A stretch of 47,716 nucleotides of DNA, from positions 1 through 47,716 of the forward strand of contig JAIQGC010000017.1 of the NCBI GenBank assembly GCA_020072805.1, read 5' to 3'. The notes under the pieces were generated by a model. That model had not been told where the DNA came from, searched no databases, and saw only the letters and a list, made by a program, of their open reading frames with translations. Both the position numbers and the translations under genes were made by a program. This stretch comes from Terriglobia bacterium (GTDB lineage: Bacteria; Acidobacteriota; Terriglobia; Acidiferrales; UBA7541). How positions within the stretch are numbered: the first letter of the stretch is position 1; each line of letters opens with the position of its first letter. Positions 8,624-46,928 of this stretch are shown piece after piece.

Positions 8624-8744
8624 CCGGCCTGCGCGCCCGCGCGTGATTCCTCCGCGATAATTCTGCTATTCTATAGCGTGGAACCAGAGGCCTGAACGTA
8701 ACCTTCGCCCACCCCAGCGTATCCACAGAGAGGAATTACCGACC

Positions 8745-24969: not shown

Positions 24970-25620
24970 TCAATCGGATTGCGGGGTGGCCGGCGCGAGG
25001 TTGGCGCCGGTTTTCTTTTTTTTCAGCAGCCAGGGATCGAGCCGCAAAAGAAGCAGGACGGCCGCCGCCGCGCCATAGGCCACCGGCTTGCGCACGTCGG
25101 ACTTCACCAGCCAATAATAATGAACAACTCCTGCGGCGGCGGCGAAGTAGATGGCGCGGTGCAGCTGCTGCCAGCGGCGCCCGCCCAGGCGGCGAATCCA
25201 GCCGGCGGTCGAGGTCACCGCCAGGGGAAGAAGCAGGAGGAAGCCGGCGAAGCCGACGGTGATGTAGCGGCGCTTCTGAATATCGCGCCACATGTCATCC
25301 CAGGCGAAGAACTGGTCGAGGCCGATCCAGATGCTGAAATGCAGGAAAGCGTAGAAGAAAGCGAAAAGACCGAGCATGCGGCGATAACGAATGAGTTGGG
25401 GCAGACCCAGTAGGCGGCGCAGCGGCGTGATGGCGAGCGTGAGGAGAAGAAAGCGCAGGATCCAGTCGCCGGTGGCATGGGTGATGAATTCGATGGGGTT
25501 GGCGCTGAGGCGGTGATGCAGGGCAAGCCAGAGAAGACGCGCGAGAGGACCGAGGCACAAAAGAAATACGACGGCCTTGGTCCAGCGGCTGAGCAGAATG
25601 CGTTCGAGGAAAGTTCTCAC
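24970..25620 (-). CDS. msrQ: Sulfoxide reductase haem-binding membrane subunit
   Basis: MsrQ (YedZ) is the b-haem integral membrane partner that passes quinol electrons to MsrP for repair of periplasmic methionine sulfoxide. It has 216 aa with about six TM helices; FAFFYAFLHFSIWIGLD and RRWQQLHRAIYFAAAAGVVHYYWL carry the conserved haem-ligand histidines. The start is GTG 25620, 2 bp after the msrP stop, so the two are translationally linked. Confidence 0.93.
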   Translation of the reverse strand: MRTFLERILLSRWTKAVVFLLCLGPLARLLWLALHHRLSANPIEFITHATGDWILRFLLLTLAITPLRRLLGLPQLIRYRRMLGLFAFFYAFLHFSIWIGLDQFFAWDDMWRDIQKRRYITVGFAGFLLLLPLAVTSTAGWIRRLGGRRWQQLHRAIYFAAAAGVVHYYWLVKSDVRKPVAYGAAAAVLLLLRLDPWLLKKKKTGANLAPATPQSD

Positions 25621-25622
25621 GG

Positions 25623-26585
25623 TCAGAAGTTCTTGCGCAGGTCCATGCCGGAGTAGAGTCCGGCGACCTGATCGGCATAGCCGTTGAACATCAGCGTGGG
25701 GCGCTTGAAGAATTCGCCGAGGCGGCGCTCCTTGGCCTGGGTCCAGCGGGGATGGTCCACGGCAGGATTCACGTTGGAGTAAAAACCGTACTCGCGGGAA
25801 TTGGCCAGGTTCCAGGTGACGGGCGGCTGGTCCTTGACGAATCGGATGCGCACCAGGGACTTGATGCTCTTAAAGCCGTACTTCCAGGGAAGGATCATGC
25901 GCACGGGCGCGCCGTCCTGATTGGGCAGAGATTCGCCGTACATGCCGACGGTGAGCAGGGCCAGCGGGTGCATTGCTTCATCGAGCCGCAGCCCATCCAC
26001 ATAAGGAAGCGGAATGCCGGCGCGGCTGCCGAGGGGCATCTGCCGCGGATCGTAATAGCTTTCGAAAGCGACGTAGCGGGCCTTGGGCGTGGGCTCGACG
26101 AGTTTGGCCAGTTCGCTGAAGGAGTAACCGATCCACGGCACGACCATGGACCAGGCCTCGACGCAGCGATGGCGGTAGACGCGCTCTTCGAGCGGGGCCA
26201 GCTTGAGAATTTCGTCCATCGAAAACTTGCGCGGCTTTTTGACTTCGCCATCCACCGTGACGGTCCAGGGCGAAGTGCGGAAGTTCTGCGCATTCTTGGC
26301 GGGGTCGCTCTTGTCCGTGCCGAATTCGTAGAAATTGTTGTAGTGCGTGGCGTCTTCGTAGGGCGTTTGGGTTTCGTCGGTGCGGTAGGAACTTTTCACG
26401 ACGCCGCTGAGTTTATTCGAGGCGTGCACGTGCGCGGATGGCGCCAGCAGATTCCAGAGATTTTTCCCGGCTAGGGAGGCGCCAGCGGCGAGAGAGAGCC
26501 CGGCAATAAATTTTCTGCGCTCGAGATAAATCTGTTTCGGTGTCTGCTCGGAAGATTGCAATTCCGGGGCGCGCTTGATCAGCAT
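25623..26585 (-). CDS. msrP: Protein-methionine-sulfoxide reductase catalytic subunit
   Basis: MsrP (YedY) is a periplasmic molybdopterin enzyme exported by Tat. The N-terminus has the twin arginine in LERRKFIAG (R23, R24). Molybdenum-ligating C141 is in YRHRCVEAWSMVVPWIG. It is 320 aa, normal for the family. msrQ follows after 2 bp. Confidence 0.95.
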   Translation of the reverse strand: MLIKRAPELQSSEQTPKQIYLERRKFIAGLSLAAGASLAGKNLWNLLAPSAHVHASNKLSGVVKSSYRTDETQTPYEDATHYNNFYEFGTDKSDPAKNAQNFRTSPWTVTVDGEVKKPRKFSMDEILKLAPLEERVYRHRCVEAWSMVVPWIGYSFSELAKLVEPTPKARYVAFESYYDPRQMPLGSRAGIPLPYVDGLRLDEAMHPLALLTVGMYGESLPNQDGAPVRMILPWKYGFKSIKSLVRIRFVKDQPPVTWNLANSREYGFYSNVNPAVDHPRWTQAKERRLGEFFKRPTLMFNGYADQVAGLYSGMDLRKNF

Positions 26586-31293: not shown

Positions 31294-31321
31294 TTGAAGT
31301 GTGTGTGCGCAGTAGTATGAT
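31294..31321 (+). promoter_or_regulatory. Alternative sigma-70-like promoter of the cytochrome operon
   Basis: TTGAAG (31294-31299), 16-bp spacer, TATGAT (31316-31321), about 50 bp before the first gene. It could give basal expression beside the sigma-54 promoter. Confidence 0.35.
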
Positions 31322-31373: not shown

Positions 31374-32375
31374 ATGGAGCACCGCAGACCATTCAAACTG
31401 ATGGCTCTCTCGCTGATCTTCATGGGCGTCGCCACGCTGGCATGGGCAAGCGCGATCGCGGCGCAGACGGCCAATACGGAAACCAAGCCCGCGGTAACTG
31501 CACCGGCGGCGTCCCAGGCCGATGGCGATTATGTGGGCATGGAAACCTGCATCACCTGCCATGAAGACCAGCACAAGCGCTTCAAGAACACGGTCATGGG
31601 CAAGATCATGGAACATCCGCGGACGGACCTGGAAAAGCGCGGCTGCGAAGCCTGCCACGGGCCGGGGAAGGCCCACGTGGAGGCCGGAGGCGGCAAGGAG
31701 ACCATCCCGGTGCGCTTCGGCAAGGATTCCAAGAATTCCGTGGCCGAGCAGAACGCCGCCTGCCTGGATTGCCATTCCAAGGGCAATCGCCTCTTCTGGA
31801 AGGGCAGCCAGCATGATTCACGGGCCATCGCCTGCGTGGACTGCCATCAGGTGAAACAGGAACTGCACCCGGCGCTGTCCTCGGAAGGCCGTTACAGCTC
31901 TCCGCTGACGGAGAACCGCGGCCTGAAGAAGTCGCAGCCGGAGTTGTGCCTGCAATGCCACCAGATGCGCAAAGCGCAGTTGCAGCGCTCCTCGCACATG
32001 CCCTACCGCGAAGGCAAGGTAACCTGCACCAGCTGCCACAATCCGCACGGTTCGCCCAACCCCAAACAGCTCCTGCAAAGCACCACCAACGAGAATTGCC
32101 TGAGCTGCCACACCGAGCGGCGCGGCCCGTTCCTCTGGGAGCACCCCCCGGTGATGGAGAATTGCGCCAATTGCCACGATCCGCACGGCACCAGCAACCC
32201 GCAACTGCTGAAGGTGCGCATGCCACGGGTCTGCGATTCCTGCCACGTGGCCACGCGTCACCCCACGCAAGCGCAGCCTCTCGGCTCGATCAAGAATTTC
32301 AACCGCGGCTGCACCAACTGCCACTCGGCAATTCACGGGTCCAATCACCCGTCAGGCGACAAGTTCCTGCGCTAG
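31374..32375 (+). CDS. Decahaem cytochrome c, MtrA/DmsE-like (333 aa)
   Basis: A periplasmic electron carrier predicted to sit inside the outer-membrane porin encoded next. A signal peptide (residues ~1-30) is followed by exactly ten CxxCH motifs (CITCH, CEACH, CLDCH, CVDCH, CLQCH, CTSCH, CLSCH, CANCH, CDSCH, CTNCH). Size (333 aa), haem count and CHNPHG/CHDPHG spacing match MtrA, PioA and DmsE. The start ATG 31374 has AAGGAG upstream. It leads the ten-gene operon and is 19 bp from the porin gene, the usual MtrA-MtrB arrangement. Confidence 0.9.
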   Translation: MEHRRPFKLMALSLIFMGVATLAWASAIAAQTANTETKPAVTAPAASQADGDYVGMETCITCHEDQHKRFKNTVMGKIMEHPRTDLEKRGCEACHGPGKAHVEAGGGKETIPVRFGKDSKNSVAEQNAACLDCHSKGNRLFWKGSQHDSRAIACVDCHQVKQELHPALSSEGRYSSPLTENRGLKKSQPELCLQCHQMRKAQLQRSSHMPYREGKVTCTSCHNPHGSPNPKQLLQSTTNENCLSCHTERRGPFLWEHPPVMENCANCHDPHGTSNPQLLKVRMPRVCDSCHVATRHPTQAQPLGSIKNFNRGCTNCHSAIHGSNHPSGDKFLR

Positions 32376-32394
32376 GAAGGGAGAGCGAACGAAC

Positions 32395-35058
32395 ATGAAA
32401 ACCATCAAACAGTTAGCAGCTTTCACAGTCTTCGCCATCCTGTGCTTCCCCGCGGGCCTCTTCGCACAGGAGGAGAAGGCTCCCGAACACGGAACGATTG
32501 ATTTCGGACTGCGCTTTGCCGCGGGCGATGTGGATGGCCGGCCGGATCTGCTCAGCGGCCAATGCCTGGGATGCGGCAGCCCGTTCGATCCGTCCTTGAA
32601 AACCTCGAAATACAACGAATACCGGGACATCCGCAACGGCTTTTTCATTCGCCGCCTGGACTTCAAATTTGAAAACGTCCTGGGCTCGAAGAACAACTAC
32701 ATGACTCTGCAATCGCAGAAGTCGCTGTTCAAGGACCAGAGTTATCTGGCGACGTACGGAAGCTATGGCAAGTTCAAAATCCAGTTCCGCTACGACGAAA
32801 TTCCGCACACCTACAGCAACACCGCCCGCACCCTGTTTACCGAAACCTCCCCGGGCGTGTGGAGATTTCCGGATCTGATCCGGAAGACCTTGCAAAGTCC
32901 CACCACCTCGGCCGCCAATCTCCCCTCGGTCATCAACACCCAGGTGGTGACGGACTTCAACTTCATCACGCCGGCCATTCTCCGCCGCGCGGGTAGCCTG
33001 CTGTTCTCCTACAATCCCACGGCGGAATGGAGCCTGACGGCCTCGTTCTGGCGGGAAAGCGAGAAGGGCAACCGGCCCATCGGCCTGATCATGAACTCCA
33101 GCCCCAGCGCCAGCGCCAGTTCCGGTTATGGCGTGGAACTGCCCGAGCCGATCAACTACTTCAACAACCGCCTGCAATTTGGCGCCGAATACGGCAGGCA
33201 AAGCTGGGCTTTCCAGGCTGGTTACTTCGGCTCCTTCTTCCAGAACAATGTCGGAACGCTCACGTGGGACAATCCCTTCCGGTTGACCCTCGAGAGCGCG
33301 GGCAATCCGCTCACCGGGCGCATGGACCTGTACCCCGATAATCAGGCGCATTACCTGAACTTTGCCGCGGGAGCCGACGTGGGCAAGTACGTGCGTGTGA
33401 CGGGCAGCGTCACCCCGGGCTGGCTGCGGCAGAACGACCTGTTCCTGCCGTACAGCACCAATACCGCGCTGCTTACCTGCGGCGACGGAACGCAGGCCTG
33501 CACTTCGATAGCGGCGCTGCCGGTGGCCCGCCTGGAGGGGAACAAGCAAACCCTGGCCATGAACTTCTCCGGCGTAACCACGATGTGGAAGAAGGTCCAG
33601 GCCAAGGCCTCTTACCGCCACTACGATTACAACAACAACACTCCGGTGCATTCGTTTACTCCTGCGGAAGGCGATTCCGCGGCGCCGGCGCTGGACCCGA
33701 TCACGCTCTTGCCCGTGACCACGGAAAACACTCCGTTTGGCTACAACCGCAAAAACCTCGAACTGAGCGGCAGCTGGTACTTCTCCAAGCGCAGCGCCTT
33801 CAAGCTCGGCTACGAGAAGGAATGGATGGACCGTGTGCATCGCGACGCGGAACATTCCGTGGACAATTCCATCTTCACCGCCGTGGACTTCAGCCCGAAC
33901 AAGGATCTGCTCTTCCGCCTGTCTTACCGGCACTCCGACCGCAAACCGGAAGTCTATCTGGACGACGTTTCTCTGGAGATCTCCGGAGGCATCCCGGTGG
34001 ACAGCCCCTTGGCCCGCCGCTTCGACCAGGCGGCCCGGCTGGAGCACCGCGCCGACGGCTTGGTGCAATACAACTTCACGGACAAGCTGACCGCTTCGGC
34101 CTTTGCCGGCACTCTGCAGGACGACTACAACCGTGCCGGGGAGTCCAACAGCGCCACGCCGCTGAACTTCCTGACCGGCGCCGCCGCTACCACCAACCCG
34201 TATTATCTCTACGGCCTGCTGAAGGACATCTCCTACAACTACGGCGTCAATCTGGACTACGCCCTCAGCACCCAAGTCACCCTGTTCGCCGAGTATTCCC
34301 GCGAGCAGTACCACAAGCGCATGATTTCCCGCTATCGCGGGCCGGAAAGCACCACCCTCACGGCGAATCCCAACGGTTGCGGCACGAGCAGTAATGGACT
34401 TCTCTACCAGGGTCCCTGCGACAGCCCCAACAACGACTGGGAGAGCACTGCCAACGAACGGGTGGACATCCTGGCCGCGGGCGCCGACGCCCATTTCGGC
34501 AAGAAGACCTATCTGACCGCCTACTACACGCTGTCGGCAGCGAAAGGCAACGTCAATTCGGCGGCGCTGGGAACTCAGCCGGCCAATTTCCTCACCAGCC
34601 CCACTCCTGTTGACCCCACTCCCCTGGCCCTGGCCGACCGCTTCATGCTGACGACAACCAACGCGGCCGTGGACTATCCGGAAACGGTCAATCGCTCGCA
34701 CGAGTTCACGGTCATGTTCCGCTACAAACTGACGGACCGCCTCACGCCGAAGTTCGAGTACCGCTACCAGCAATGGGACTACAAGGACTATCAGACTTCG
34801 GCCATGACTCAGTACATGGGCTGCGTGGCGACAACTGGCGTACCCGCCGTGCTTGTGCCGCAAACCCCGTCTGTCTCTGCCACGGTCGCGCCGGGCTGTC
34901 CTAGTGTGGGCCCGACGGCGGCTTCGTCAATCTCCAGCCCCTACTACCCTTACTTCGTGGTGGGCGATCCCTCGGCGGCGCGCTATCTGTTCCTGGGCGT
35001 GGACCAGCCTTCGTACAAGGCCCATTACGTGTCTTTTACTCTGGAATACCGCTTCTAG
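32395..35058 (+). CDS. MtrB/PioB-like outer-membrane beta-barrel (887 aa)
   Basis: Large porin predicted to sheath the decahaem cytochrome through the outer membrane. Signal peptide (~1-24), then a CxxC (C57, C60; QCLGC) in the N-terminal region, a feature of MtrB. After that come many alternating amphipathic strands with aromatic girdles (e.g. YNEYRDIRNGFFIRRLDFKF) and a C-terminal strand ending in Phe (VSFTLEYRF), as needed for Bam insertion. It is longer than Shewanella MtrB (~700 aa). Identity rests on context, CxxC and barrel character; a family search would confirm. Confidence 0.85.
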   Translation: MKTIKQLAAFTVFAILCFPAGLFAQEEKAPEHGTIDFGLRFAAGDVDGRPDLLSGQCLGCGSPFDPSLKTSKYNEYRDIRNGFFIRRLDFKFENVLGSKNNYMTLQSQKSLFKDQSYLATYGSYGKFKIQFRYDEIPHTYSNTARTLFTETSPGVWRFPDLIRKTLQSPTTSAANLPSVINTQVVTDFNFITPAILRRAGSLLFSYNPTAEWSLTASFWRESEKGNRPIGLIMNSSPSASASSGYGVELPEPINYFNNRLQFGAEYGRQSWAFQAGYFGSFFQNNVGTLTWDNPFRLTLESAGNPLTGRMDLYPDNQAHYLNFAAGADVGKYVRVTGSVTPGWLRQNDLFLPYSTNTALLTCGDGTQACTSIAALPVARLEGNKQTLAMNFSGVTTMWKKVQAKASYRHYDYNNNTPVHSFTPAEGDSAAPALDPITLLPVTTENTPFGYNRKNLELSGSWYFSKRSAFKLGYEKEWMDRVHRDAEHSVDNSIFTAVDFSPNKDLLFRLSYRHSDRKPEVYLDDVSLEISGGIPVDSPLARRFDQAARLEHRADGLVQYNFTDKLTASAFAGTLQDDYNRAGESNSATPLNFLTGAAATTNPYYLYGLLKDISYNYGVNLDYALSTQVTLFAEYSREQYHKRMISRYRGPESTTLTANPNGCGTSSNGLLYQGPCDSPNNDWESTANERVDILAAGADAHFGKKTYLTAYYTLSAAKGNVNSAALGTQPANFLTSPTPVDPTPLALADRFMLTTTNAAVDYPETVNRSHEFTVMFRYKLTDRLTPKFEYRYQQWDYKDYQTSAMTQYMGCVATTGVPAVLVPQTPSVSATVAPGCPSVGPTAASSISSPYYPYFVVGDPSAARYLFLGVDQPSYKAHYVSFTLEYRF

Positions 35059-35125: not shown

Positions 35126-35449
35126 ATGAACTCAACACTCAGCAGGGGGTTGGTGATCGCAGCGGCGGGGATGGCTCTTCTGGTCTGGCCGGCGTCTTCG
35201 CGTGCCGATGAAGCCGCCGATCTGTTCAAGGCCAAGTGCGCCATGTGCCACGGCGCGGACGGCGCCGGAAAGCCGGCCATGAAGACGCGCGACTTTGGTT
35301 CCGCGGATGTGCAGAAGCAGACCGACGCGGAACTGACCGCCATCGTCACCAAGGGCAAGAACAAGATGCCCGCCTACGAGACCAAGCTCAGCAAGGAACA
35401 GATTGCCGGGCTGGTGGCGCACATTCGGACATTGGCTAAAAAAAACTAA
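35126..35449 (+). CDS. Monohaem class I cytochrome c (107 aa)
   Basis: Periplasmic carrier. Signal peptide to ~SRA, one CAMCH haem site and a probable Met ligand in TKGKNKMPAYETKL. GGGAGG precedes ATG 35126. It is clearly paralogous to the cytochrome at 38359 (shared TKGKNKMPAY). It probably shuttles electrons from the Rieske/cytochrome b complex encoded next. Confidence 0.88.
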   Translation: MNSTLSRGLVIAAAGMALLVWPASSRADEAADLFKAKCAMCHGADGAGKPAMKTRDFGSADVQKQTDAELTAIVTKGKNKMPAYETKLSKEQIAGLVAHIRTLAKKN

Positions 35450-35488: not shown

Positions 35489-35950
35489 ATGCCCACTAAC
35501 GATACGTCCCGCGTAAAGCCGGAACGCCGCCGCCTGGTGGAAATTCTGCTGGGCGGCGGCCTGATCGCCTCGGTCATCTCTTTCGTTTACCCCATCCTGC
35601 GTTACCTGGTTCCCCCGCCGGTTGCCGATTTGGGCGGCGATGAAGTCGTCGCCTGCAAAAAGGGCGATCTCAAGCCCAACAGCTCGAAGATCTTCCGCTT
35701 TGGAAACCGCCCGGCTCTGCTGCTGCTGACGGCCGAAGGGGAGTATCGCGCTCTCTCGGCCACCTGCACGCATCTGAGCTGCACGGTGCAGTACCGCAAC
35801 GACCTGCACCAGATCTGGTGTGCCTGCCACAACGGCCTCTACGACATGAACGGGCGCAACGTGGCCGGGCCGCCGCCGCGCCCGCTGGAAGTTTTTCAGG
35901 TGAACCTGCGCGGAGATGACGTGGTGGTGCGACGGAAACAGGGAGCCTAG
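35489..35950 (+). CDS. Rieske iron-sulfur protein (153 aa)
   Basis: [2Fe-2S] subunit of a cytochrome bc-type quinol oxidase complex. An N-terminal TM anchor (residues ~18-40) precedes the Rieske domain: box I CTHLSC (C93, H95 ligands; C98 disulfide) and box II CACHNG (C111, H114 ligands; C113 disulfide). ATG 35489 has a GGAGGG site. It is 1 bp from the cytochrome b start, so the two are coupled. Confidence 0.93.
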
Positions 35951-35951
35951 C

Positions 35952-37037
35952 GTGAAGCTTCTGCAACAGGCTTACGACTGGCTGGACGAGCGCCTGGACT
36001 TCAAGGACCTGGCCGCCCCTCTTGCCAAGAAGACCGTGCCCATGCACGGGCGCTCCTACTGGTATTTTCTGGGCGGCATCACCCTCTTCCTTTTCATGTT
36101 GCAGGTTTGCACGGGAATCCTCCTGCTGCTCTATTACCGCCCCAGCGCCGGCGAAGCCTTCGAAAGCGTGCAGTACATCATGACCCGCGTGCAGTTCGGC
36201 TGGCTGGTGCGCTCTATCCACTCCTGGGCCGCCAACCTCATGATCTTCACCGCTTTCGCGCACATGTTCAGCGTGCTGTTCCTCAAGGCCTACCGCAAGC
36301 CCCGCGAGCTCACCTGGGTGACCGGCATGCTCCTGCTCTTCCTGGCCATGGGCTTTGGCTTCAGCGGCTACCTCCTGCCCTGGAACACGCTGGCCTTTTT
36401 CGCCACCAAGGTGGGCACGGACATTGCCGGACAGGTTCCCGTGGTCGGCAAGTGGATCATGATTTTTCTGCGCGGCGGCGAGGAAGTGACCGGAGCGACG
36501 CTGACGCGCTTTTTTGGCTTCCACGTGGCCGTGCTCCCCGGCATCACCACGGTTCTTATTGCCGGGCATATCTTCCTGGTGCAGCGCTTCGGCATGAGCG
36601 TCCCGCCGGAAGTGGAAGAACGCTGGAAGGCGGCGCCCGCGGAAGCGCGGGAAATGAAATTCTTTCCCAGCTTTTTCCTGCGCGAGCTGATGGCCTGGTA
36701 TATCGCCCTGGCCGTGCTGGGCGCGCTGGCCGCGTTGCTGCCGTGGGAACTGGGCACCAAGGCGGACCCCTTCGCTCCGGCGCCCCTCGGCATCAAGCCC
36801 GAGTGGTATTTCCTGTTCATGTTTCAGACGCTGAAGCTCATCCCCGCCAAGGTGTGGCTGGTGGACGGAGAGTTGCTGGGCATTCTGGTCTTCGGCGCGG
36901 CCGGTGGTTTGTGGGTTCTCCTGCCTTTCTTCGACGGCGCGGCCCGCGGGCGCGGCCGCAGAATGATCTTGGGCGCGGGCATTTTCGCGCTGGCGTTTAT
37001 TCTGGTGATGACGGTCTATGGCTATGTGGCGAAATAA
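35952..37037 (+). CDS. Cytochrome b of a bc-type complex (361 aa)
   Basis: Integral membrane quinol-oxidising subunit with the cytochrome b6 and subunit-IV-like parts fused. Four haem-ligand histidines are visible: H90/H104 (13 residues between) and H191/H206 (14 between), the spacing of b6-type proteins. The Qo-site PEWY is in [15 protein letters not shown]. The start is GTG 35952. The complex appears to lack a classical cytochrome c1/f; the adjacent 9-haem anchored cytochrome may replace it. Confidence 0.93.
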
Positions 37038-38280
37038 AACGATCTGGCGGTACGCGTGGCCCGGCCTGCTGCTTTGCCTCGCGGCCGTTCCCGCTCTCGC
37101 GCAATCAACCAGCACCTGCCTGGATTGCCACGCTACGCTCGACCCGCCGCTGCAGGTGACCGAGCAGCAGTTCGCCGCGGACATTCATGCGCAGAAAGGA
37201 CTGACCTGCGCGAGTTGCCATGGCGGCGATCCCAAGCTCGCGGACATGGACGCGATGAGCAAGAAGGCCGGCTTCCGCGGAAAGATCGAAAAGAAGCAGA
37301 TTCCGGAATTGTGCGGCAAATGCCATTCCGACGGGGCCTACATGCGGCAATACAACCCCTCGCTGCGCACCGATCAGCTCGCCCAGTATAAAACCAGCGT
37401 GCACGGAAAGCTGCTGGCCAAAGGCGACCTAAAAGTCGCCGTCTGCACGGACTGCCACGGGCTGCACGGATTGCGCCCGGCCAGCGACACGCGCTCGCAG
37501 GTCCATCCCTTGAATGTGGCGAAGACCTGTTCGCGCTGCCATGCCGACGCCGCCTACATGAAGGACCACCACATCCCTACCGACCAGTTCGCCAAGTACA
37601 CCACGAGCGTGCATTTTGATGCGCTGACCGTGCGCGGAGACTTGAGCGCGCCCACTTGCACCACCTGCCACGGAAATCACGGCGCCGCGCCTCCGGGCGT
37701 GGATTCGGTGCAAAACGTGTGCTCGAACTGCCATGTGTTTCAGTCCCAGCTCTACGAAAAGAGTTCGCACAAAGCCGCTTTCCAGCGCTCCGCTCTTCCC
37801 GGATGCATGGTCTGCCACGGAAAGCACGACATCAGCCACCCCACCGACGCCAATCTGGGCGCCGGCCCCAAGGCCGTATGCATGCAGTGCCACAAACCCG
37901 GAGACGTCTGCGACCAGGCCCGCGTGAAAATCCTCGGCAACCTGACGCAACTCGACGACGGCATCCGCGGCGCCGATCAGCTTCTGGCGGCCGCCGAAGC
38001 TTCCGGCATGGAGGTCAGCGAAGCGCGGCTCGAGCAGGATCAGGCGCGCGATGCCCTGACCAAGGCGCGCGTTTCCATCCACCGCTTCCGGGTGGACCCG
38101 GTGAATCAGGACGTGCAGGCGGGCATGAAGATCGTGGCCAAGAACCTGCAAGCGGGAAAGGATGCGCTGCGCGAGCGCGATTACCGGCGCATGGGCCTGG
38201 GCGTGGCCCTCCTGAGCATCTTCATGGTGCTGGTGGGGCTGCGCCTGTACATCGGAAAGATGGAACAGAAGGCGCGCTGA
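37018..38280 (+). CDS. Nine-haem membrane-anchored cytochrome c (420 aa)
   Basis: Signal peptide (residues ~1-28) and nine CxxCH motifs (CLDCH, CASCH, CGKCH, CTDCH, CSRCH, CTTCH, CSNCH, CMVCH, CMQCH) in the first ~300 residues. A helical coiled-coil-like stretch (residues ~300-385) and a C-terminal TM helix ([19 protein letters not shown]) anchor it. The start overlaps the end of the cytochrome b gene by about 20 bp, hinting that it is the high-potential haem subunit of that complex. A second ATG 6 bp later is possible. Confidence 0.88.
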
Positions 38281-38358: not shown

Positions 38359-38703
38359 ATGACAATGCGAATCAACTGGGCGGTAAAATTCGGCGCGTGT
38401 CTTCTGGCGCTCGCCGTGATGCTCCTGTGGAGCGCGCCAGCGCAGGCCCAGAGCGCGGGCGAAAAGGTGTACAAGGCGAAGTGCGCGGGGTGCCACGGTC
38501 CGGACGGAACCGCCGCCACCGCCGCCGGAAAGGCCACCAAGACGCCCAGCGTCTGCACCGAGGAGGCCGCCAAGGCCACCGATGCGGATTGGACGGAAAT
38601 CATCACCAAGGGCAAGAACAAGATGCCCGCCTATGACAAGAAGCTGACCGAGGCGGAAATCAAGGACGTCATTGCCTACATGAGAAGTCTGTGCAAGAAA
38701 TAG
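38359..38703 (+). CDS. Monohaem class I cytochrome c (114 aa)
   Basis: Signal peptide to ~AQA, CAGCH haem site, probable Met ligand in TKGKNKMPAYDKKL. Paralogue of the 35126 cytochrome. It lies between the 9-haem and NapC-like genes. Confidence 0.88.
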   Translation: MTMRINWAVKFGACLLALAVMLLWSAPAQAQSAGEKVYKAKCAGCHGPDGTAATAAGKATKTPSVCTEEAAKATDADWTEIITKGKNKMPAYDKKLTEAEIKDVIAYMRSLCKK

Positions 38704-38825: not shown

Positions 38826-40274
38826 ATGAGCCCACAGCACACCATCCGCGAATGGGTCCGGCTGTTCTATTACCTGGGGCAGAATTTTGCCTCCATGGCC
38901 GGTGTGGTTCTCACCACCAGCAGCGCCTTCACCATGATCGGCTTCTGGATCCTGGAGTCCCTGCAACGCGGCCCCGTTCATCCTTACATCGGCATCCTGA
39001 TCTTTCTGATTCTTCCGGGACTCTTCATCCTGGGATTGCTCCTGATCCCCCTGGGCATCTGGCTGCGCCAGAGCTCGCTGCGCAAGCGCCAGGCCCTCCC
39101 GCTCACCTATCCCGCGGTGGATTTCGCCATCCCCGCGGCGCGCCGCGCTTTCCTGCTGGTCAGCGGCGCCACCCTGCTGAATGCCGTTATCGTCTCCATG
39201 GCCTCCTATCGCGGCGTGGAATACATGGACACCACGCAGTTCTGCGGACAGACCTGCCACACGGTCATGATTCCCGAATTCACCGCCTATCAGAATTCGC
39301 CTCATTCCAACGTTTCCTGCGTGGCCTGCCACATCGGGCCCGGCGCCGGCTGGTTTGTGCGTTCCAAGCTTTCCGGCGTGCGCCAGGTCTTTGCCGTGAC
39401 CTTCCATACGTATTCACGGCCCATTCCCGCTCCGGTCAAATACCTCCGCCCCGCGCGGGAAACCTGCGAGCAATGCCACTGGCCGCAGCGCTTCACCGGC
39501 GACAAGTTCCTGGTGAAAACCAAATACAAGGACGACGAGAAAAACACCGCGCTGAAGACCGTCCTGCTGATGAAGATCGGCGGACGCACCTGGCAGGGCG
39601 TTGCGGGCATTCACGGGCGCCACCTGGATGCCGGCTCGCGCATCCGTTACACCTCCATTGACGAGCAGCGCCAGGTCATCCCCGTGGTGTTCTACACCGA
39701 CGACGCCGGAAAAAACGTGGAATACGTTTCCAGCGACGCCAAAGCCACCCCGCAGCAACTGGCCGCCGGCGAAACCCGCACCATGGATTGCGTGGACTGC
39801 CACAACCGCCCCACGCATGCCTTTGAAATGCCCGATGCGGCCCTGGACAAGCGCATGAGCGAAGGCCTGGTCAGCCCCGAATTGCCCTTTATCAAGAAGA
39901 AGGGCATGGAGCTGCTCAAGGCCGAATATCCGGACCGTGACGAAGCCCGCCGCCGCATCATCACCGAACTCAACGAGTTCTACCGCGCCTCCTATCCGCA
40001 GATTTACCGGGCCCGGCGCACCGTGGTGCAGCAGTCGGCTGAGCAGGTGGCCGCCATTTACGAGCGCAATATTTTCCCGGACATGAAGCTGTCCTGGGGC
40101 ACGCATCCCAATAATCTGGGGCACAACGATTTCCCCGGCTGTTTTCGCTGCCATGACGGCAGCCATACCAGCGCGGACGGAAAGACAATCGACAACGATT
40201 GCTCCGCCTGCCACGCCCTGCTGGCCATGGAAGAGGAAAATCCCAAGGTGCTGACTGACTTGGGGCTGAAATAG
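38826..40274 (+). CDS. NapC/NirT-like multihaem cytochrome c, inner-membrane (482 aa)
   Basis: Three N-terminal TM helices (residues ~18-115) precede a periplasmic haem domain. The first haem site is CGQTCH, a CxxxCH spacing known in NapC-like Geobacter proteins, followed by CVACH, CEQCH, CVDCH, CFRCH and CSACH: six in all. HTVMIPE after the first site is like the Met-containing NapC/NrfH signature. Such proteins take electrons from menaquinol to periplasmic cytochromes; Geobacter ImcH is an analogue. ATG 38826 has only a weak ribosome site. Confidence 0.85.
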   Translation: MSPQHTIREWVRLFYYLGQNFASMAGVVLTTSSAFTMIGFWILESLQRGPVHPYIGILIFLILPGLFILGLLLIPLGIWLRQSSLRKRQALPLTYPAVDFAIPAARRAFLLVSGATLLNAVIVSMASYRGVEYMDTTQFCGQTCHTVMIPEFTAYQNSPHSNVSCVACHIGPGAGWFVRSKLSGVRQVFAVTFHTYSRPIPAPVKYLRPARETCEQCHWPQRFTGDKFLVKTKYKDDEKNTALKTVLLMKIGGRTWQGVAGIHGRHLDAGSRIRYTSIDEQRQVIPVVFYTDDAGKNVEYVSSDAKATPQQLAAGETRTMDCVDCHNRPTHAFEMPDAALDKRMSEGLVSPELPFIKKKGMELLKAEYPDRDEARRRIITELNEFYRASYPQIYRARRTVVQQSAEQVAAIYERNIFPDMKLSWGTHPNNLGHNDFPGCFRCHDGSHTSADGKTIDNDCSACHALLAMEEENPKVLTDLGLK

Positions 40275-40308
40275 CCGCCGGCAAAGTTTGCAGGAAAGTC
40301 TGGGAGCG

Positions 40309-43137
40309 GTGAAAGTTAGGGTCCAGGAAAGTTCGCAATCCGCGGGCGGAAACGCCTTCCGCGGATTTCTCTTGCTGCTTCTCCTCCACGCCGCCGCTTC
40401 CGTGTCCTCCCGCGCCGCTTCTCCATCTCCTGCCACCAACGAGGAATGTCTCGCCTGCCACGGCGATAAAAGCATGTCCGTGGAACATTCCGGGCGAACC
40501 GTGTCCCTCTATGTGGACGGGAAAAAGCTGGCCGTCTCGGCGCATGCCAGCCTGGGCTGCACCGCCTGCCACGCCAGCCTGGAAGGCCAGGAGATTCCTC
40601 ACGGCGCGCCGGTCGAGCGCGTGGACTGCGGCCTGTGTCACGCTCCCGAGCAGGAGCAGCATGCCCGCTCGCTGCACGGAAAGGCGGTGGCGCGCGGCGA
40701 CCCTCTGGCGCCGCGCTGTAAGGACTGCCACGGCAAACACGACATCTTTCCCGTCAAAGATCCCCGCTCGGCGGTGGCCCCGCTGCGAGTCCCCTTCGTC
40801 TGCGGCCGCTGCCATCGCGAAGGGACTCCGGTGCAGCGCAACCGCGACATCCCGCAAAGCAACATTCTGGAAAACTATTCGGAAAGCATTCACGGCGAAG
40901 GTTTGCTGAAAAAGGGCCTGATCGTGGCCCCCACCTGCGCCACCTGCCACACGGCCCACCTGATCCTGCCGCATACCGACCCGGCTTCCAGCATCGCCAG
41001 GAAAAACATCGCCGCGACCTGCACGCGCTGCCACGCGCAGATCGAGGAGGTGCACCGCAAGACCATCAAGGGCGAATTGTGGGAAAAGCAGTCGCACATT
41101 CTTCCCGCCTGCGTCGATTGTCACCAGCCGCACAAAATCCGCAATGTCTTCTATGAGCAGGGCATGGCCGACGCCGATTGCCTGCGCTGCCATGGCAATC
41201 CGCGCCTGCGCCGCGCCCGCGACTCTCGCTCCATGTTCGTCCCGGCGGCCGAACTGGCCGGCTCGCGCCACTCCAAAATTGCCTGCAGCCAGTGCCACTC
41301 GGAAGTGAACGCTTCGCGCCTGCGCCCCTGCGAAACCATCACCCGCCCGGTGGACTGCACCGCCTGCCACGAGGAAATCGGCAGGCAATACCAGAGCAGC
41401 ACCCATGGGCAGCTCTTGGGCGCAAAAAATCCCGTGGCTCCGGACTGCCGCGAATGCCACGGAACGCATGCCGTGCTGGGCAAGAGCAACCCCGCCTCGC
41501 CCTCGTTCCCCACGAATATTCCCGCGCTGTGCGCGCGCTGCCATCGCGAGGGGCAAAAGGCCGCCGCGCGTTACACCGGAACGCAGCACGAAATCATCGA
41601 GCACTACACCGAAAGCATTCACGGCAAGGGCCTGCTCAAGAGCGGCCTGACCGTCACCGCCACCTGCACCAATTGCCACACCGCCCACCGCGTTCTCCCG
41701 CGCAGCGATCCGCAATCCAGCGTCAATCACGCTAATGTTCCCGCCACCTGCGGCCAATGCCATCACGGCATTCAAGAGCAGTTCGACCGCAGCGTTCACG
41801 TTCGCGGAAACGGCAAGAACGGCCACCCCCTGCCCGTTTGCAACGATTGCCATACGGCCCACACCATCCGCCGCGCCGACGAGGACGCCTTCAAGCTGGA
41901 CATCATGACCAAATGCGGCCGCTGCCACGAAGAGATCGCCAAAACTTATTTCGACACCTACCACGGCAAAGTCTCGCGCCTGGGCTACACCAAGACCGCC
42001 AAATGTTATGACTGCCACGGCGCGCATGACGTCCGCGCCGTGGCCGACCCCAACTCGCGCCTGAGCCGCGCCAACGTCGTGGCCACCTGCCAGAAGTGCC
42101 ACCCCGGCGCCACCCGCCGCTTCGCCGGTTACCTCACCCACGCCACGCACCACGATCCCCGCAAGTATCCCTTCCTCTTCGCCGCGTTCTGGGGTATGAC
42201 CGCGCTGCTGGCCGGCACCTTCCTGGTCAGCGGCCTGCACACCCTGCTGTGGATTCCCCGCGCCTTCCAGATGCGCCGCGAACTGCGCACCGCCGCGGTC
42301 CCGCCCGCCGGCGAGCGCCAGTTCGTGCGCTTCACGCGCCTGCATCGCGTCCTGCACACCGGCATGATTCTCTGCTTCATGAGCCTGGCGCTCACCGGAT
42401 TGACCCTGAAGTTTTCCTACACCGGCTGGGCCGTCACGCTCTCCCGCCTGCTGGGCGGTTTCGAAACCGCCGGATACATTCACCGCGCCGCGGCCGTGGT
42501 GATGTTCTCCGTCTTCGTGATGCACCTGCTGGACCTGCTGCGGCTGAAGCGCCACGAGTACCACTCCTGGAAAGCCCTGCTCTTCGGACCCGATTCCATG
42601 CTGCCCGGACGCCGCGACTTTTCCGAATTCATCGCCACCGTGAAATGGTTCGTGGGCCGCGGACCCCGCCCCTCCTATGGCCGCTGGACCTACTGGGAAA
42701 AATTCGACTACTTCGCGGTTTTCTGGGGCATCGCCATCATCGGAGCCACCGGCCTGACCCTGTGGTTCCCGGTTTTCTTCACGCGCGTGCTGCCCGGAAT
42801 GTTTCTCAACGTGGCCACCATCATTCACAGCGACGAGGCCTTGCTGGCCACCGGCTTTATTTTTACCGTGCATTTCTTCAACACCCATCTGCGCCCGGAA
42901 AAATTCCCCATGGACATCACCATCTTTACGGGGCGCGTGGCCCTCGAGGAAATGCGGCGGGATAAACCGCGCGAAGTGCAAGCCCTGGCCGCCGCCGGCA
43001 AGCTCGAGGAAAAAATGGACGCCGCCTATCCCCCCATCGTCACCCGCACCATTCGCGCCTTCGCCTGGTCCGCCCTGGCCGTGGGCTTCAGCATTGTCTT
43101 GTGGATTTTGTACGCCATGCTTTTCGCGTACCGCTAG
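40309..43137 (+). CDS. 19-haem cytochrome c fused to b-type membrane cytochrome (942 aa), CbcL-like
   Basis: After an N-terminal signal/anchor ([12 protein letters not shown]) there are nineteen CxxCH motifs in ~600 residues, then a membrane domain with four to five TM helices and several His ([40 protein letters not shown]) typical of FdnI/HydC-type dihaem b cytochromes. The layout resembles Geobacter CbcL but has about twice its c-haems. The haem part contains an internal duplication (see findings). The stop TAG lies within the left end of an interspersed palindromic element. GTG 40309 is chosen; a TTG 21 bp earlier is possible. Confidence 0.85.
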
Positions 43138-43341: not shown

Positions 43342-45468
43342 ATGCGCGTACTGAAGATTGCGGCGCTGATCCTGGCGATCGTGCTGGCGTTGCTGATGGC
43401 GCTGACCCTGCTGGCGCCCACTGCCGCGGCAAACCAGAAGGAAAATGCGGCTTGCCTGGACTGCCACGGCCAGCCGGACATGAAGAGCGAAACTGGCAAA
43501 AACATCTCCCTGCATGCGGATAAGTTTCAGGGCAGTATCCACGGCATTCTGGCGTGCCGCGACTGTCACACCGCTCTGCGCGGCTTCCCCCATCCGGCGA
43601 AAGTCCCGCGCGTGAAGTGCGCAGCCTGCCACGCCGAACCTTCCGCCGACATGCCCCGCAGCGTTCACGCCGCCCTGGGCGCGGACGCCTGCCGCTCCTG
43701 TCATGGCGACCTGCACGAACTCACTGCGGAAAACAAAGTGGCTCCGGAGAAATGCGCGGCCTGCCACGAGCAGCAGGTGAAGGAGTTGCGAGCCAGCGCG
43801 CACGGAAAAGCGCAGAAGGCCGGAGATACCGACGCCCCGGGATGCGCCAACTGCCACGGCCCCGCCCACCGCATCGTGGCATCCAGCGCAGCGGCCTCGC
43901 CCGTGGCCAAAAAGAATCTGCCGGATACCTGCTCGGCCTGTCACGGCAACAAGGAGTTTCTCTCGCGCCACCGCATTCCCCTGGCGCATCCCGTGGAAAG
44001 CTACCGCCTGAGCGTGCACGCGCAAGCCGTCGCCAGCGGAAAAAATGCGGCCACCTGCTCGGACTGCCACGGCAGCCACGGCATCGCCGTGGGGCGCGAA
44101 GCGCGTTCGCCCATCAATCACTGGAACGTGGCGGAAACCTGCGGCCGTTGCCATGCCGGCGTCGCCAAGAAATATCTCGCGGGAGTGCACGGGCAGGCCA
44201 TGCTGGCGGGCGTGCGCGACGCCCCCGTATGCACCGATTGCCACGGCGAGCACGGCATTCTTTCTCCCTCCGACGCCGGCTCCCGCGTGAACGCCGCGCG
44301 CGTTTCCATGGATACCTGCGCGCGCTGTCACAGCGACGAGCGCCTGGCCGAGCGCTACAACCTGCCCACCGACCGCGTGCCCTCCTACGCGGATAGTTTT
44401 CACGGACTTTCCATCAGCGAGGGCTCGCTGACCGTGGCCAACTGCTCCTCCTGCCACGGCGTGCATGACATCTTCCGCTCCAGCGACCCGCGCTCCATGG
44501 TGCATCCCGCCAATCTGGCGAAAACCTGCGGCCATTGCCATAACGGCGCCGGAGAACGCTTCGCCATCGGCGCGGTGCACGTGCGCACCGCCAGCGGCCC
44601 GGCGCATCCCGCCGTGCGCTGGATCCGCTGGATTTACTGGGTGCTGATCCCCCTGACGCTGTTCTTCATGGTTGCGCACAACGCCCTGGATCTCCTCTCC
44701 AAACTGGTGCGTCCGCGCCCCCGGCCGGAAAGTCCGCAGCAGGCCGTGCGCATGAATTTCCATTTTCGCCTGGCCCATTGGGGCGTCATGCTCAGTTTCC
44801 CCACGCTGGTCTTCACCGGCTTTGCCTTGAAATATCCCGCCAAGTGGTGGGCCCAGCCCCTGCTGCTGTGGGAAAGCCACATCGCGTTTCGCGGCACGCT
44901 GCACCGCATCGCAGCGGTGGTTCTGCTGGCCGCGACGATTTATCACTTTGCTCATCTGGCGGTGAATAAGCGCGACCGCTCTATCTTGCGGGCCCTGCTC
45001 CCGCGCTGGCGCGATTTCACCGATTTACTGCGCGTCCTCCGCTACAACCTGGGCTTCTCCCGCGAAGCGCCGCAATTCCCCAAATTCAGCTACGCCGAAA
45101 AAATAGAGTACTGGGCCTTTCTCTGGGGCACCGCGATCATGGCCCTCTCCGGCTTTCTGCTGTGGTTCAATAATTTCACCCTGCATTACTTTCCCAAGTG
45201 GCTGACCGACGCGGCCACCGCCGTGCACTTCTATGAAGCCCTCCTGGCCACCTTCTCCATTCTGCTCTGGCATTTTTATCTGGTGATCTTCGACCCCCTG
45301 GTTTATCCCATGGACCTCGCCTGGCTGCACGGCAGGGTTCCCGCGGAGCATTACCGCCACACGCGCCCAGACTATTACCGGGCGCTGGAGGAGGCTGGAC
45401 GGTTGCGCGAACCGGCCGCCGCGGAGTCCGGGAAGACGAAAGAAGAAGAACGGGAGCCGGGCGCTTGA
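43342..45468 (+). CDS. 13-haem cytochrome c fused to b-type membrane cytochrome (708 aa)
   Basis: Signal/anchor helix (residues ~5-28), thirteen CxxCH motifs between residues ~38 and 400, then a 4-5 helix b-type domain (WIYWVLIPLTLFFMVAHNALDLL, RLAHWGVMLSFPTLVFTGFALKY, GTLHRIAAVVLLAATIYHFAHL, HFYEALLATFSILLWHFYLVI) with paired His for b haems. It has the same plan as the preceding 19-haem protein and is presumably a second quinol-to-periplasm module. GGAGG precedes ATG 43342. It is the last gene of the operon; tnaA follows with its own promoter. Confidence 0.87.
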   Translation: MRVLKIAALILAIVLALLMALTLLAPTAAANQKENAACLDCHGQPDMKSETGKNISLHADKFQGSIHGILACRDCHTALRGFPHPAKVPRVKCAACHAEPSADMPRSVHAALGADACRSCHGDLHELTAENKVAPEKCAACHEQQVKELRASAHGKAQKAGDTDAPGCANCHGPAHRIVASSAAASPVAKKNLPDTCSACHGNKEFLSRHRIPLAHPVESYRLSVHAQAVASGKNAATCSDCHGSHGIAVGREARSPINHWNVAETCGRCHAGVAKKYLAGVHGQAMLAGVRDAPVCTDCHGEHGILSPSDAGSRVNAARVSMDTCARCHSDERLAERYNLPTDRVPSYADSFHGLSISEGSLTVANCSSCHGVHDIFRSSDPRSMVHPANLAKTCGHCHNGAGERFAIGAVHVRTASGPAHPAVRWIRWIYWVLIPLTLFFMVAHNALDLLSKLVRPRPRPESPQQAVRMNFHFRLAHWGVMLSFPTLVFTGFALKYPAKWWAQPLLLWESHIAFRGTLHRIAAVVLLAATIYHFAHLAVNKRDRSILRALLPRWRDFTDLLRVLRYNLGFSREAPQFPKFSYAEKIEYWAFLWGTAIMALSGFLLWFNNFTLHYFPKWLTDAATAVHFYEALLATFSILLWHFYLVIFDPLVYPMDLAWLHGRVPAEHYRHTRPDYYRALEEAGRLREPAAAESGKTKEEEREPGA

Positions 45469-45575: not shown

Positions 45576-46928
45576 ATGAAAACTATCATCGAGCCCTTCC
45601 GCATCAAGAGCGTCGAGCGCATCCGCGAAACCACCCGCGAAGAACGCCAGCGCCTGATCGCCGCCGCCGGCTACAACCTCTTCCTCGTTCCCGCCGACGC
45701 CATCCTCATCGACCTGCTCACCGATTCCGGCACTTCGGCCATGTCCACCGAACAGTGGGCCGCCATGATGCGCGGTGATGAAAGCTACGCCGGCTCCTCC
45801 AGCTTCGACCGCTTCCGCCGCTCCGTGCAGGATATTTTCGGCTTCCGCCACGTCATTCCCACGCACCAGGGCCGCGCTGCGGAACGGATTCTCTTCACGG
45901 TGATGTGCAAGAAGGGCGACGTCGTCCCCAACAACACCCATTTCGACACCACCCGCGCCAACTGCGAATTCGTTGGAGCCGAAGCCCTCGACCTGCCCAT
46001 CGCCGAAGCCCTCGAACCCGCCGCGTTGCATCCCTTCAAGGGCAATATGGACACGGCGCGCCTTGCGGAAACCATCGAGCGCCTGGGCGCCAAGCGCATT
46101 CCTCTGGTGATGCTGACCGTAACCAACAATTCCGGCGGCGGCCAGCCCGTCTCCATGGCCAATATCCGCGCGGTCAAGGCCATCTGCGCGAAGCACGGCA
46201 TTCCCCTCTATATCGACGCCTGCCGCTTCGCCGAAAATTCCTGGTTTATCAAACTCCGCGAGCCGGGCTACGCCGATAAAACTCCCCGCGCCATCGCCCA
46301 AGAAATGTTTTCTCTCGCCGACGGCTGCACCATGTCCGCCAAGAAAGACGGCCTCGCCAATATCGGCGGCTTCCTCTGCACCAATGACGATCTTCTCGCC
46401 CAGCAGGAAAAAGACCTCCTCATTCTCACCGAAGGTTTTCCCACCTACGGCGGTCTCGCCGGGCGCGACCTCGAAGCTATCGCCGTCGGCCTCAACGAAG
46501 CTCTCGAAGAGGACTACCTGAAATATCGCATCGCCTCCACCGGGTTTCTCGGCAACCACATCGCCGCCGCAGGCGTGCCCATCGTTCAGCCTCCCGGCGG
46601 CCACGCCATCTATCTGGACGCCCGCGCCTTCCTCCCGCATATTCCCCCGGCGCAATTCCCCGGCGTGGCCCTGGCCATCGAGCTGTATCTGGCCGGCGGT
46701 ATCCGCTCGGTTGAAATCGGCACGCTGATGTTTGGCGAGCACGCCCGCATGGACCTGGTGCGCCTGGCCATTCCCCGCCGCGTTTATACCCAGAGCCATA
46801 TCGAGTACGTCGTCGAAGTCATCCTGGACGTGTGGAAGCGCCGCGAATCCCTCCGCGGCTACGACCTGACCTACCAGGCCCCCTTCCTCCGCCACTTCAC
46901 CGCGCGGTTGCAGCCGCGCGCCGGATAA
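45576..46928 (+). CDS. tnaA: Tryptophanase (450 aa)
   Basis: PLP enzyme splitting L-tryptophan to indole, pyruvate and ammonia. The beta-eliminating lyase fold is clear; the PLP lysine is K257 (MSAKKDG). Residues that separate tryptophanase from tyrosine phenol-lyase are of the tryptophanase type: D124 (HFDTTR; Thr in TPL) and I381 (SVEIG; Arg in TPL). It is shorter than E. coli TnaA (471), near TPL length. No tryptophan transporter adjoins. Indole could serve as a signal. Confidence 0.85.
   Translation: MKTIIEPFRIKSVERIRETTREERQRLIAAAGYNLFLVPADAILIDLLTDSGTSAMSTEQWAAMMRGDESYAGSSSFDRFRRSVQDIFGFRHVIPTHQGRAAERILFTVMCKKGDVVPNNTHFDTTRANCEFVGAEALDLPIAEALEPAALHPFKGNMDTARLAETIERLGAKRIPLVMLTVTNNSGGGQPVSMANIRAVKAICAKHGIPLYIDACRFAENSWFIKLREPGYADKTPRAIAQEMFSLADGCTMSAKKDGLANIGGFLCTNDDLLAQQEKDLLILTEGFPTYGGLAGRDLEAIAVGLNEALEEDYLKYRIASTGFLGNHIAAAGVPIVQPPGGHAIYLDARAFLPHIPPAQFPGVALAIELYLAGGIRSVEIGTLMFGEHARMDLVRLAIPRRVYTQSHIEYVVEVILDVWKRRESLRGYDLTYQAPFLRHFTARLQPRAG

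What the first reader, a model, noticed from the sequence alone, without database searches (positions are those of the whole stretch)
31374..35058. MtrAB-type conduit without a visible MtrC-type surface cytochrome
The decahaem MtrA-like gene is followed after 19 bp by a barrel with N-terminal CxxC (C57, C60) and C-terminal Phe. No lipoprotein-signal multihaem cytochrome is in the window. The conduit may work as a two-part PioAB-like iron-oxidation unit, or pair with an external cytochrome encoded elsewhere.
Basis: partly seen in the sequence, partly recalled or inferred. Interest (0 to 1): 0.75.

Follow-up and report, generated by a model that had tools for sequence, protein, structure and literature searches.

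The report
Acidobacterial outer-membrane electron wire lacking MtrC
An acidobacterium carries genes for a haem wire through its outer membrane, in one gene row with the inner-membrane proteins that could feed it, but without the usual surface cytochrome, which suggests a complete electron-export chain of unusual make-up.

Summary
Window 31374-32375 encodes a decahaem MtrA-type cytochrome, followed after 19 bp by an MtrB/PioB-family barrel (32395-35058). The genome has one PF11854 barrel and no OmcA/MtrC match over cut-off. The pair heads a 14-kb same-strand gene row: monohaem cytochrome, Rieske protein, cytochrome b, 9-haem cytochrome, monohaem cytochrome, an ImcH-like quinol oxidase (3 TM, CX3CH, 5 CX2CH) and two CbcL-like multihaem/b561 proteins. 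These ten genes and a following lyase are syntenic in two congeners. In 399 genomes of the class, PF11854 barrels occur in 26, 19 of them with an ImcH-like gene; in 8, from two families, both lie within about 10 kb, and none of those 8 has MtrC. A 2018 survey found no mtrAB beside imcH. Best reading: an MtrC-less conduit wired to quinol oxidases, most likely exporting electrons. PioAB-like iron oxidation is disfavoured (ImcH implicated only in quinol oxidation as of 2018; no RuBisCO; no adjacent pioC) but not excluded. An OmcE-like tetrahaem cytochrome elsewhere in the genome is a speculative outer partner. The CxxC is not at the gammaproteobacterial MtrB position. Structure models failed. New variant of a known kind.

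The parts
31374..32375 (+). mtrA-like decahaem c-type cytochrome, signal sequence, 10 CXXCH
   Evidence: 8 further His shared with Shewanella MtrA as candidate distal ligands
32395..35058 (+). MtrB/PioB-family outer-membrane barrel, 887 aa, C-terminal Phe
   Evidence: C-terminal Phe in 23 of 24 aligned acidobacterial barrels
35126..35449 (+). monohaem c6-type cytochrome (c6a), possible periplasmic carrier
   Evidence: at the same place in G007 and G009
35489..35950 (+). Rieske iron-sulphur protein
35916..37037 (+). cytochrome b (b6 plus C-terminal domain), overlaps the Rieske gene
37018..38280 (+). 9-haem cytochrome with one C-terminal TM helix
38359..38703 (+). second monohaem c6-type cytochrome (c6b)
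38826..40274 (+). ImcH-like NapC/NirT-family quinol oxidase: 3 TM, one CX3CH, five CX2CH
   Evidence: criteria from PMC6295460
40288..43137 (+). CbcL-like protein: 19 CXXCH plus b561/FdnI-like membrane domain (weak, 24 bits, below the Pfam cut-off; TTG start uncertain)
43342..45468 (+). second CbcL-like protein: 13 CXXCH plus b561/FdnI-like membrane domain
31294..31321 (+). sigma-70-like promoter match about 50 bp before mtrA (weak; the number found in the region is no more than chance)

Best explanation
The two genes encode an MtrAB-type electron conduit across the outer membrane that works without an MtrC-type cytochrome and is part of an electron-export chain encoded in one gene row. Proposed flow: quinol is oxidised at the inner membrane by the ImcH-like protein, the two CbcL-like proteins or the Rieske/cytochrome b unit; electrons pass by the 9-haem and monohaem c6-type cytochromes through the periplasm to MtrA; MtrA inside the barrel carries them out to a mineral, a shuttle or an extracellular cytochrome. 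Shown here: gene identities by family, gene order, its conservation, no MtrC by family search. Inferred: that the genes form one operon, the direction of flow, the partner order and the final acceptor.
For: Family and structure-sequence matches. ImcH criteria of PMC6295460 met (3 TM, CX3CH, 5 CX2CH); lengths and haem numbers of both CbcL-like proteins lie in the ranges given there. Same 11-gene order (ten plus a lyase) in congeners G007 and G009. PF11854 and ImcH-like genes within about 10 kb in 8 of the 19 genomes that have both, in families f1 and f11 (listed places; gene orders). PF11854 and ImcH-like co-occur: 19 of 26 against 166 of 373 (p 0.007). ImcH-like is itself linked to extracellular electron transfer in this class: in 70 of 74 genomes with OmcA/MtrC against 115 of 325 without (p 1.7e-22; relatedness not corrected). 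ImcH implicated only in quinol oxidation as of 2018. No RuBisCO in 8 of 8. MtrAB alone can pass electrons across the outer membrane (PMC4245776, passages).
Against: No expression or physiology data. PF11854 barrels also occur without an ImcH-like gene (7 of 26), and in 11 of the 19 the two genes are on different contigs by the listed places (one further ImcH-like place of G161 was not listed; assembly breaks may matter). AlphaFold models of both proteins are unusable (pLDDT 35 and 25), so MtrA-in-barrel fit is untested. CbcL-type proteins are found in both metal reducers and iron oxidisers. A 2018 comparison read lone mtrA/mtrB genes in Acidobacteria as not being Shewanella- or Geobacter-like iron reduction (PMC5900883, passage).
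Confidence: 0.7

Rival explanations
1. A PioAB/MtoAB-like iron-oxidation unit: electrons from Fe(II) enter through MtrAB, pass a monohaem carrier (MtoD-like) and reach the quinone pool or an oxidase through the CbcL/MtoC-like proteins and the Rieske/cytochrome b unit working in reverse.
For: MtrC is missing, as in several Fe(II)-oxidiser clusters (PMC4245776); mtoAB clusters can contain a CbcL-type gene (mtoC) and mtoD; a monohaem cytochrome follows the barrel here. PMC10654088 reports PioA/PioB/PioC homologues in Acidobacteria (passage).
Against: ImcH-like gene in the row, implicated only in quinol oxidation as of 2018; no RuBisCO in 8 of 8 (other CO2-fixing routes and mixotrophy not tested); no PioC next door; MtrA lacks the long haem-free N-terminal region reported for Rhodopseudomonas PioA (passage; first haem at residue 59), though that region is said to be rare outside Rhodopseudomonas.
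Confidence: 0.15
2. Compatible with the best explanation: MtrAB hands electrons to an extracellular OmcE-type cytochrome filament encoded elsewhere in the genome (contig C103), which takes the place of MtrC.
For: A 230-aa tetrahaem protein matches 7tfs (OmcE filament by recall; the tool says 'Cytochrome c') with E 1.4e-9, three haem motifs aligned and a fourth present; the N-terminus of an 11-haem neighbour matches with E 2.8e-20. Relatives at E below 1e-60 in 9 of 399 genomes; within the genus these are, in that sample, the three genomes with the full mtrAB-imcH row (own included); all 9 have an ImcH-like gene and none has MtrC.
Against: On another contig than mtrAB; no such relative in the other 5 genomes with mtrAB near imcH (3 of them match only weakly, through a longer protein); 6 of the 9 lack a PF11854 barrel; the three congeners may simply share ancestry; 0 of 9 with MtrC is not significant (p 0.22); no proof of filaments or of contact.
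Confidence: 0.2
3. A DmsEF-like conduit for an extracellular terminal reductase (DMSO or iodate type).
For: The cytochrome family model is named DmsE family.
Against: No molybdopterin DMSO-reductase subunit among the ORFs of the row or the 19 further window ORFs scanned; the neighbours are inner-membrane quinol oxidases instead. The rest of the genome was not searched for one.
Confidence: 0.04
4. A classical MtrCAB system whose mtrC is encoded elsewhere or was lost in assembly.
For: mtrC lies apart from mtrAB in some Desulfobacterota (PMC12133095, passages); the genome is in 157 contigs.
Against: Completeness 99.77%; no TIGR03507 match over cut-off in it; the congeners G007 and G009 (110 and 10 contigs) also have none; the same search finds MtrC in 74 of 399 genomes, so it works in this class.
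Confidence: 0.05

Closest known systems
MtrAB of Shewanella MtrCAB (PDB 6R2Q)
   Same: Decahaem MtrA plus MtrB-family barrel; 10 CXXCH, 7 of the 9 spacings within 3 residues
   Different: No MtrC; barrel 887 aa against 695; haem 4-5 spacing 38 against 23 and haem 9-10 spacing 26 against 35; inner-membrane partners are ImcH/CbcL-like, not CymA; CxxC placed differently from the Photobacterium MtrB
MtoAB(CD) and PioAB(C) of iron oxidisers
   Same: MtrC-less MtrAB pair; monohaem cytochrome and CbcL-type genes in the cluster as in mtoABCD
   Different: ImcH-like and Rieske/cytochrome b genes in the row; no PioC next door; no RuBisCO in the genome
Geobacter inner-membrane quinol oxidases ImcH and CbcL
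   Same: ImcH-like: 3 TM, CX3CH, 5 CX2CH; CbcL-like: multihaem N-terminus plus b-type membrane domain
   Different: In Geobacter they pass electrons through PpcA to outer-membrane systems (passages); here they share a gene row with mtrAB and c6-type carriers
mtrA/mtrB homologues in cultured Acidobacteria (PMC5900883) and MtrCAB group 5 of Acidobacteriia (PMC8805035)
   Same: Same phylum, same conduit family (passages)
   Different: The passages seen do not report linkage to imcH and cbcL; MtrCAB group 5 has MtrC

Membership tests
MtrAB-type conduit (TIGR03508 plus PF11854) | Decahaem cytochrome with 10 CXXCH over the family cut-off | tested here: met
   252 bits against 192; 10 CXXCH
MtrAB-type conduit (TIGR03508 plus PF11854) | MtrB/PioB-family barrel adjacent | tested here: met
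   PF11854 287 bits against 23; TIGR03509 225, below its cut-off of 240
MtrAB-type conduit (TIGR03508 plus PF11854) | 26-strand barrel that encloses the cytochrome | tested here: inconclusive
   AlphaFold models of pLDDT 25 and 35; no complex prediction available
MtrCAB | OmcA/MtrC-family surface cytochrome | tested here: not met
   No TIGR03507 match over cut-off in the genome; the unspecific domain PF22113 does match MtrA and the 13-haem b561 protein
PioABC | HiPIP gene pioC after pioB | tested here: not met
   Next gene is a monohaem cytochrome, then Rieske; the rest of the genome was not searched for a HiPIP
PioABC | Clade with PioA/PioB in a tree | not testable with these tools
   No PioA reference was at hand; the tree holds Acidobacteria, Shewanella and Photobacterium only
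ImcH | NapC/NirT family, 3 TM, one CX3CH, 5-9 CX2CH | tested here: met
   criteria from PMC6295460
ImcH | Sequence clade with Geobacter ImcH | not tested
   No Geobacter ImcH sequence was at hand
CbcL/MtoC/MtrH | 416-1034 aa, 3-23 CX2CH, mostly 6 TM with b-haem His | tested here: inconclusive
   949 aa/19 and 708 aa/13 CXXCH fit; simple hydropathy sees 5 segments each, the first of the 708-aa protein being its signal sequence; His ligands not checked
DmsEF | Adjacent DMSO-reductase-type molybdoenzyme genes | tested here: not met
   None among the window ORFs scanned
OmcE filament cytochrome (candidate partner, contig C103) | Tetrahaem protein similar to OmcE | tested here: met
   230 aa, 4 CXXCH, E 1.4e-9 to 7tfs
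OmcE filament cytochrome (candidate partner, contig C103) | Polymerises; haem ligand from the next subunit | not testable with these tools
   Feature from PMC9473688 and PMC12307469 (passages)

The most novel reading that the evidence does not exclude
A hybrid export chain: Geobacter-type quinol oxidases (ImcH, CbcL) drive a Shewanella-type MtrAB conduit, which plugs straight into an OmcE-type cytochrome filament in place of MtrC. It would be a natural answer to how cytochrome filaments are fed at the outer membrane.
Probability: 0.2. Interest if true: 0.8.

Novelty: new variant of a known kind. Interest (0 to 1): 0.52.

Why it matters
[quoted passage not shown] Here the 'missing' inner half is present in the same gene row, but of the ImcH/CbcL kind, and the linkage recurs in two families. 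If the chain exports electrons, these Acidobacteria gain a plausible route to ferric minerals or other outside acceptors, and MtrC is not needed for it. How filament cytochromes are anchored and redox-coupled at the cell membranes is named as an open question in a 2025 review (PMC12307469, passages); these genomes give a concrete pair to test.

Tried and rejected

MtrA loop as a mark of MtrC docking: the haem 9-10 spacing is 26 here and 35 in Shewanella, where MtrA residues 284-306 face MtrC (PMC7198977, passage). Rejected: G088 and G115, whose genomes have no MtrC, have 39, while the MtrA genes beside MtrC in G392 and G055 have 26 and 25.

CxxC as the MtrB signature: rejected on position. Lipobox as the test for a surface cytochrome: 0 of 22 multihaem ORFs (3 or more CXXCH) found in this genome have one (20, 2), but neither do the three acidobacterial MtrC-family proteins tested, so it proves little. 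The 22 come from CXXCH, TIGR03507, PF22113 and PF14537 hits; the CXXCH list showed only about the first 100 of 375 places, so the inventory is not proven whole. Of the stretches fetched, L060-L063 held no ORF with 3 or more CXXCH.

Depletion of MtrC among PF11854 genomes (3 of 26 against 71 of 373) is not significant (p 0.44). One 23-haem protein of C116 was compared with the PDB and had no useful match; the other was not. The plasmid search for named MtrA references gave only Photobacterium and a weak Granulicella hit. A tree against PioA could not be made. Loci L121-L123 were fetched but not analysed. The first script printed nothing of use because the files were laid otherwise.
Full report
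OBSERVATION. Window 31374-32375 (+) encodes a 333-aa protein with a signal sequence and ten CXXCH motifs. It scores 252 bits with TIGR03508 (cut-off 192) and matches Shewanella MtrA 6r2q_A with E 3.9e-60; 8 further histidines are shared with it as candidate distal ligands. After 19 bp, 32395-35058 (+) encodes an 887-aa PF11854 barrel (287 bits, cut-off 23), matching 6r2q_B with E 3.7e-9. The CLGC at C57/C60 and the C-terminal Phe are there. Among 24 aligned acidobacterial barrels (own included) the CxxC occurs in 4, after the first predicted strand; the Photobacterium MtrB CxxC lies before that strand. It should therefore not be read as the gammaproteobacterial MtrB motif. C-terminal Phe occurs in 23 of 24 (the exception, from G036, was not examined further).

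SURROUNDINGS. The eight genes after the barrel, all on the + strand, are electron-transfer genes: monohaem c6-type cytochrome 35126-35449, Rieske 35489-35950, cytochrome b 35916-37037, 9-haem cytochrome 37018-38280, monohaem cytochrome 38359-38703, NapC/NirT-type protein 38826-40274, and two proteins with 19 and 13 CXXCH plus a b561/FdnI-like membrane domain, 40288-43137 and 43342-45468 (for the first of these the Pfam match to that domain, 24 bits, is below the cut-off). Gaps are 204 bp or less and two gene pairs overlap; no + strand terminator-like match lies in an intergenic gap from mtrA to 45468, and a promoter-like match precedes mtrA by about 50 bp, though promoter-like matches are no more numerous than chance. 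That it is one operon is inference. The NapC-type protein meets the description of ImcH in PMC6295460 (3 TM, a CX3CH beside them, 5-9 CX2CH; sections 10 and 11 read). The two large proteins fit the size and haem ranges given there for CbcL/MtoC/MtrH, but their b-haem ligands were not checked.

CONSERVATION. These ten genes and a beta-eliminating lyase stand in the same order in congeners G007 and G009. pN/pS against G007 is 0.19-0.38 for the eight genes tested. A named relative is a 'gp2' Acidobacteria assembly (L046), whose contig length and gene positions equal those of congener G032; so the window is from the Acidobacteriota, same genus as that assembly. Class and order names are not given by the tools (recalled: probably Terriglobia, Acidoferrales). 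In a tree of 30 MtrA rows the window's MtrA falls with five congeners (98/98) inside a group of 16 acidobacterial sequences (98/97); Shewanella and Photobacterium lie outside it, joined to three other acidobacterial sequences with weak support (86/76).

SURVEY. In a first set of 61 relatives, PF11854 matched in 11 and the ImcH-like protein in 20. In 399 genomes of the class: PF11854 (E 1e-10 or better) in 26; ImcH-like (E 1e-40 or better) in 185; OmcA/MtrC (TIGR03507, E 1e-25 or better) in 74, not in the window's genome. PF11854 and ImcH-like together: 19 of 26 against 166 of 373 without the barrel (p 0.007). OmcA/MtrC and ImcH-like together: 70 of 74 against 115 of 325 (p 1.7e-22), which ties the ImcH-like protein to extracellular electron transfer in this class (shared ancestry not corrected). 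From the listed places, barrel and ImcH-like gene lie on one contig within about 10 kb in 8 genomes: G000, G007, G009, G036 (family f1) and G088, G115, G242, G385 (family f11). The four f11 loci read mtrA-mtrB-(c6)-(cytochrome b, 9-haem)-CbcL-like (one or two)-imcH-like, bracketed genes not in all; G036 has two mtrAB pairs on the strand opposite to its imcH row. None of the 8 has MtrC. By my arithmetic, chance placement would give about 0.1 such cases among 19 independent genomes; these genomes are not all independent. PMC6295460 states that no mtrAB/mtoAB was found adjacent to imcH. My searches of the paper library for this linkage in Acidobacteria (listings, and passages of PMC8805035, PMC4245776, PMC5900883, PMC12133095) showed no report of it; the library lacks most subscription journals.

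ABSENCE OF MtrC. Best TIGR03507 score in the genome is 18 bits against a cut-off of 209; of 11 PF11854 genomes searched, window's included, only G055 is over the cut-off. Of the 26, three have MtrC: G055, G084, G392. The Pfam domain PF22113 (MtrC/MtrF domains II/IV) rings over its cut-off in the window's MtrA and 13-haem b561 protein and in 8 of 8 genomes searched; because it marks MtrA too, I do not take it as MtrC. In G055 the MtrC genes on C40 stand with another decahaem gene and a 678-aa barrel that NCBIfam does not recognise and that the PF11854 search did not report, so counts of conduits by PF11854 are lower bounds.

DIRECTION. For export: the ImcH-like gene (implicated only in quinol oxidation as of 2018) and no RuBisCO in the 8 genomes with the linkage (five of 14 control genomes rang). 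Against certainty: CbcL-type proteins occur in reducers and oxidisers, and MtrCAB has been run as an oxidising system in laboratory settings (PMC8805035, passage). I put export through this conduit at about 0.7.

OUTER PARTNER. Contig C103 encodes a 230-aa tetrahaem protein matching 7tfs (OmcE filament; entry name recalled) with E 1.4e-9, and an 11-haem protein whose N-terminus matches it with E 2.8e-20, among two NHL-propeller genes and a 7-haem cytochrome. Relatives at E below 1e-60 occur in 9 of 399 genomes: G000, G007, G009 and six others; all 9 have an ImcH-like gene (p 0.0009), 3 of 9 a PF11854 barrel (p 0.016), 0 of 9 MtrC (p 0.22). Among the same-genus genomes of that sample they are confined to the three with the full row. 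This may be shared ancestry; it is a lead, not a proof.

VERDICT. An MtrC-less MtrAB conduit is a known kind (PioAB, MtoAB; also mtrA/mtrB in cultured Acidobacteria). What is new, as far as my searches show, is its recurrent coupling to ImcH- and CbcL-like quinol oxidases in one gene row.

Noticed in passing
L105:4273-6381, L106:4468-7152, L120:13109-15145: Large putative outer-membrane barrels next to TIGR03508 decahaem genes that match no NCBIfam model and were not reported by the PF11854 search: MtrB-like proteins unseen by the libraries, one in an MtrC-MtrC-MtrA cluster, two near imcH-like genes.
   Followed up: partly
G000:C103:5474-13035 (L118, L047): Cluster of OmcE-like tetrahaem, 11-haem and 7-haem cytochromes with two NHL beta-propeller proteins.
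   Followed up: partly
G000:C116 (L050:5122-7104 and 7464-9365): Two neighbouring frames of 660 and 633 aa with 23 CXXCH each and no lipobox; the first has almost no PDB match.
   Followed up: partly
L120, L152: Acidobacterial OmcA/MtrC-family proteins without a recognisable lipobox, so surface anchoring may differ from Shewanella.
   Followed up: partly
L069:2620-3586: One of two mtrA copies in G036 is read in two pieces, a 9-haem frame and an N-terminal stretch; a frameshift or an assembly error.
   Followed up: no
window 24970-26585 (-): Ferric-reductase-domain membrane protein beside MsrP, probably an MsrPQ methionine sulphoxide repair pair.
   Followed up: no
window 45576-46928 (+): Beta-eliminating lyase at the end of the row, kept there in G007 and G009 and beside the CbcL-like gene in G019.
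   Followed up: no
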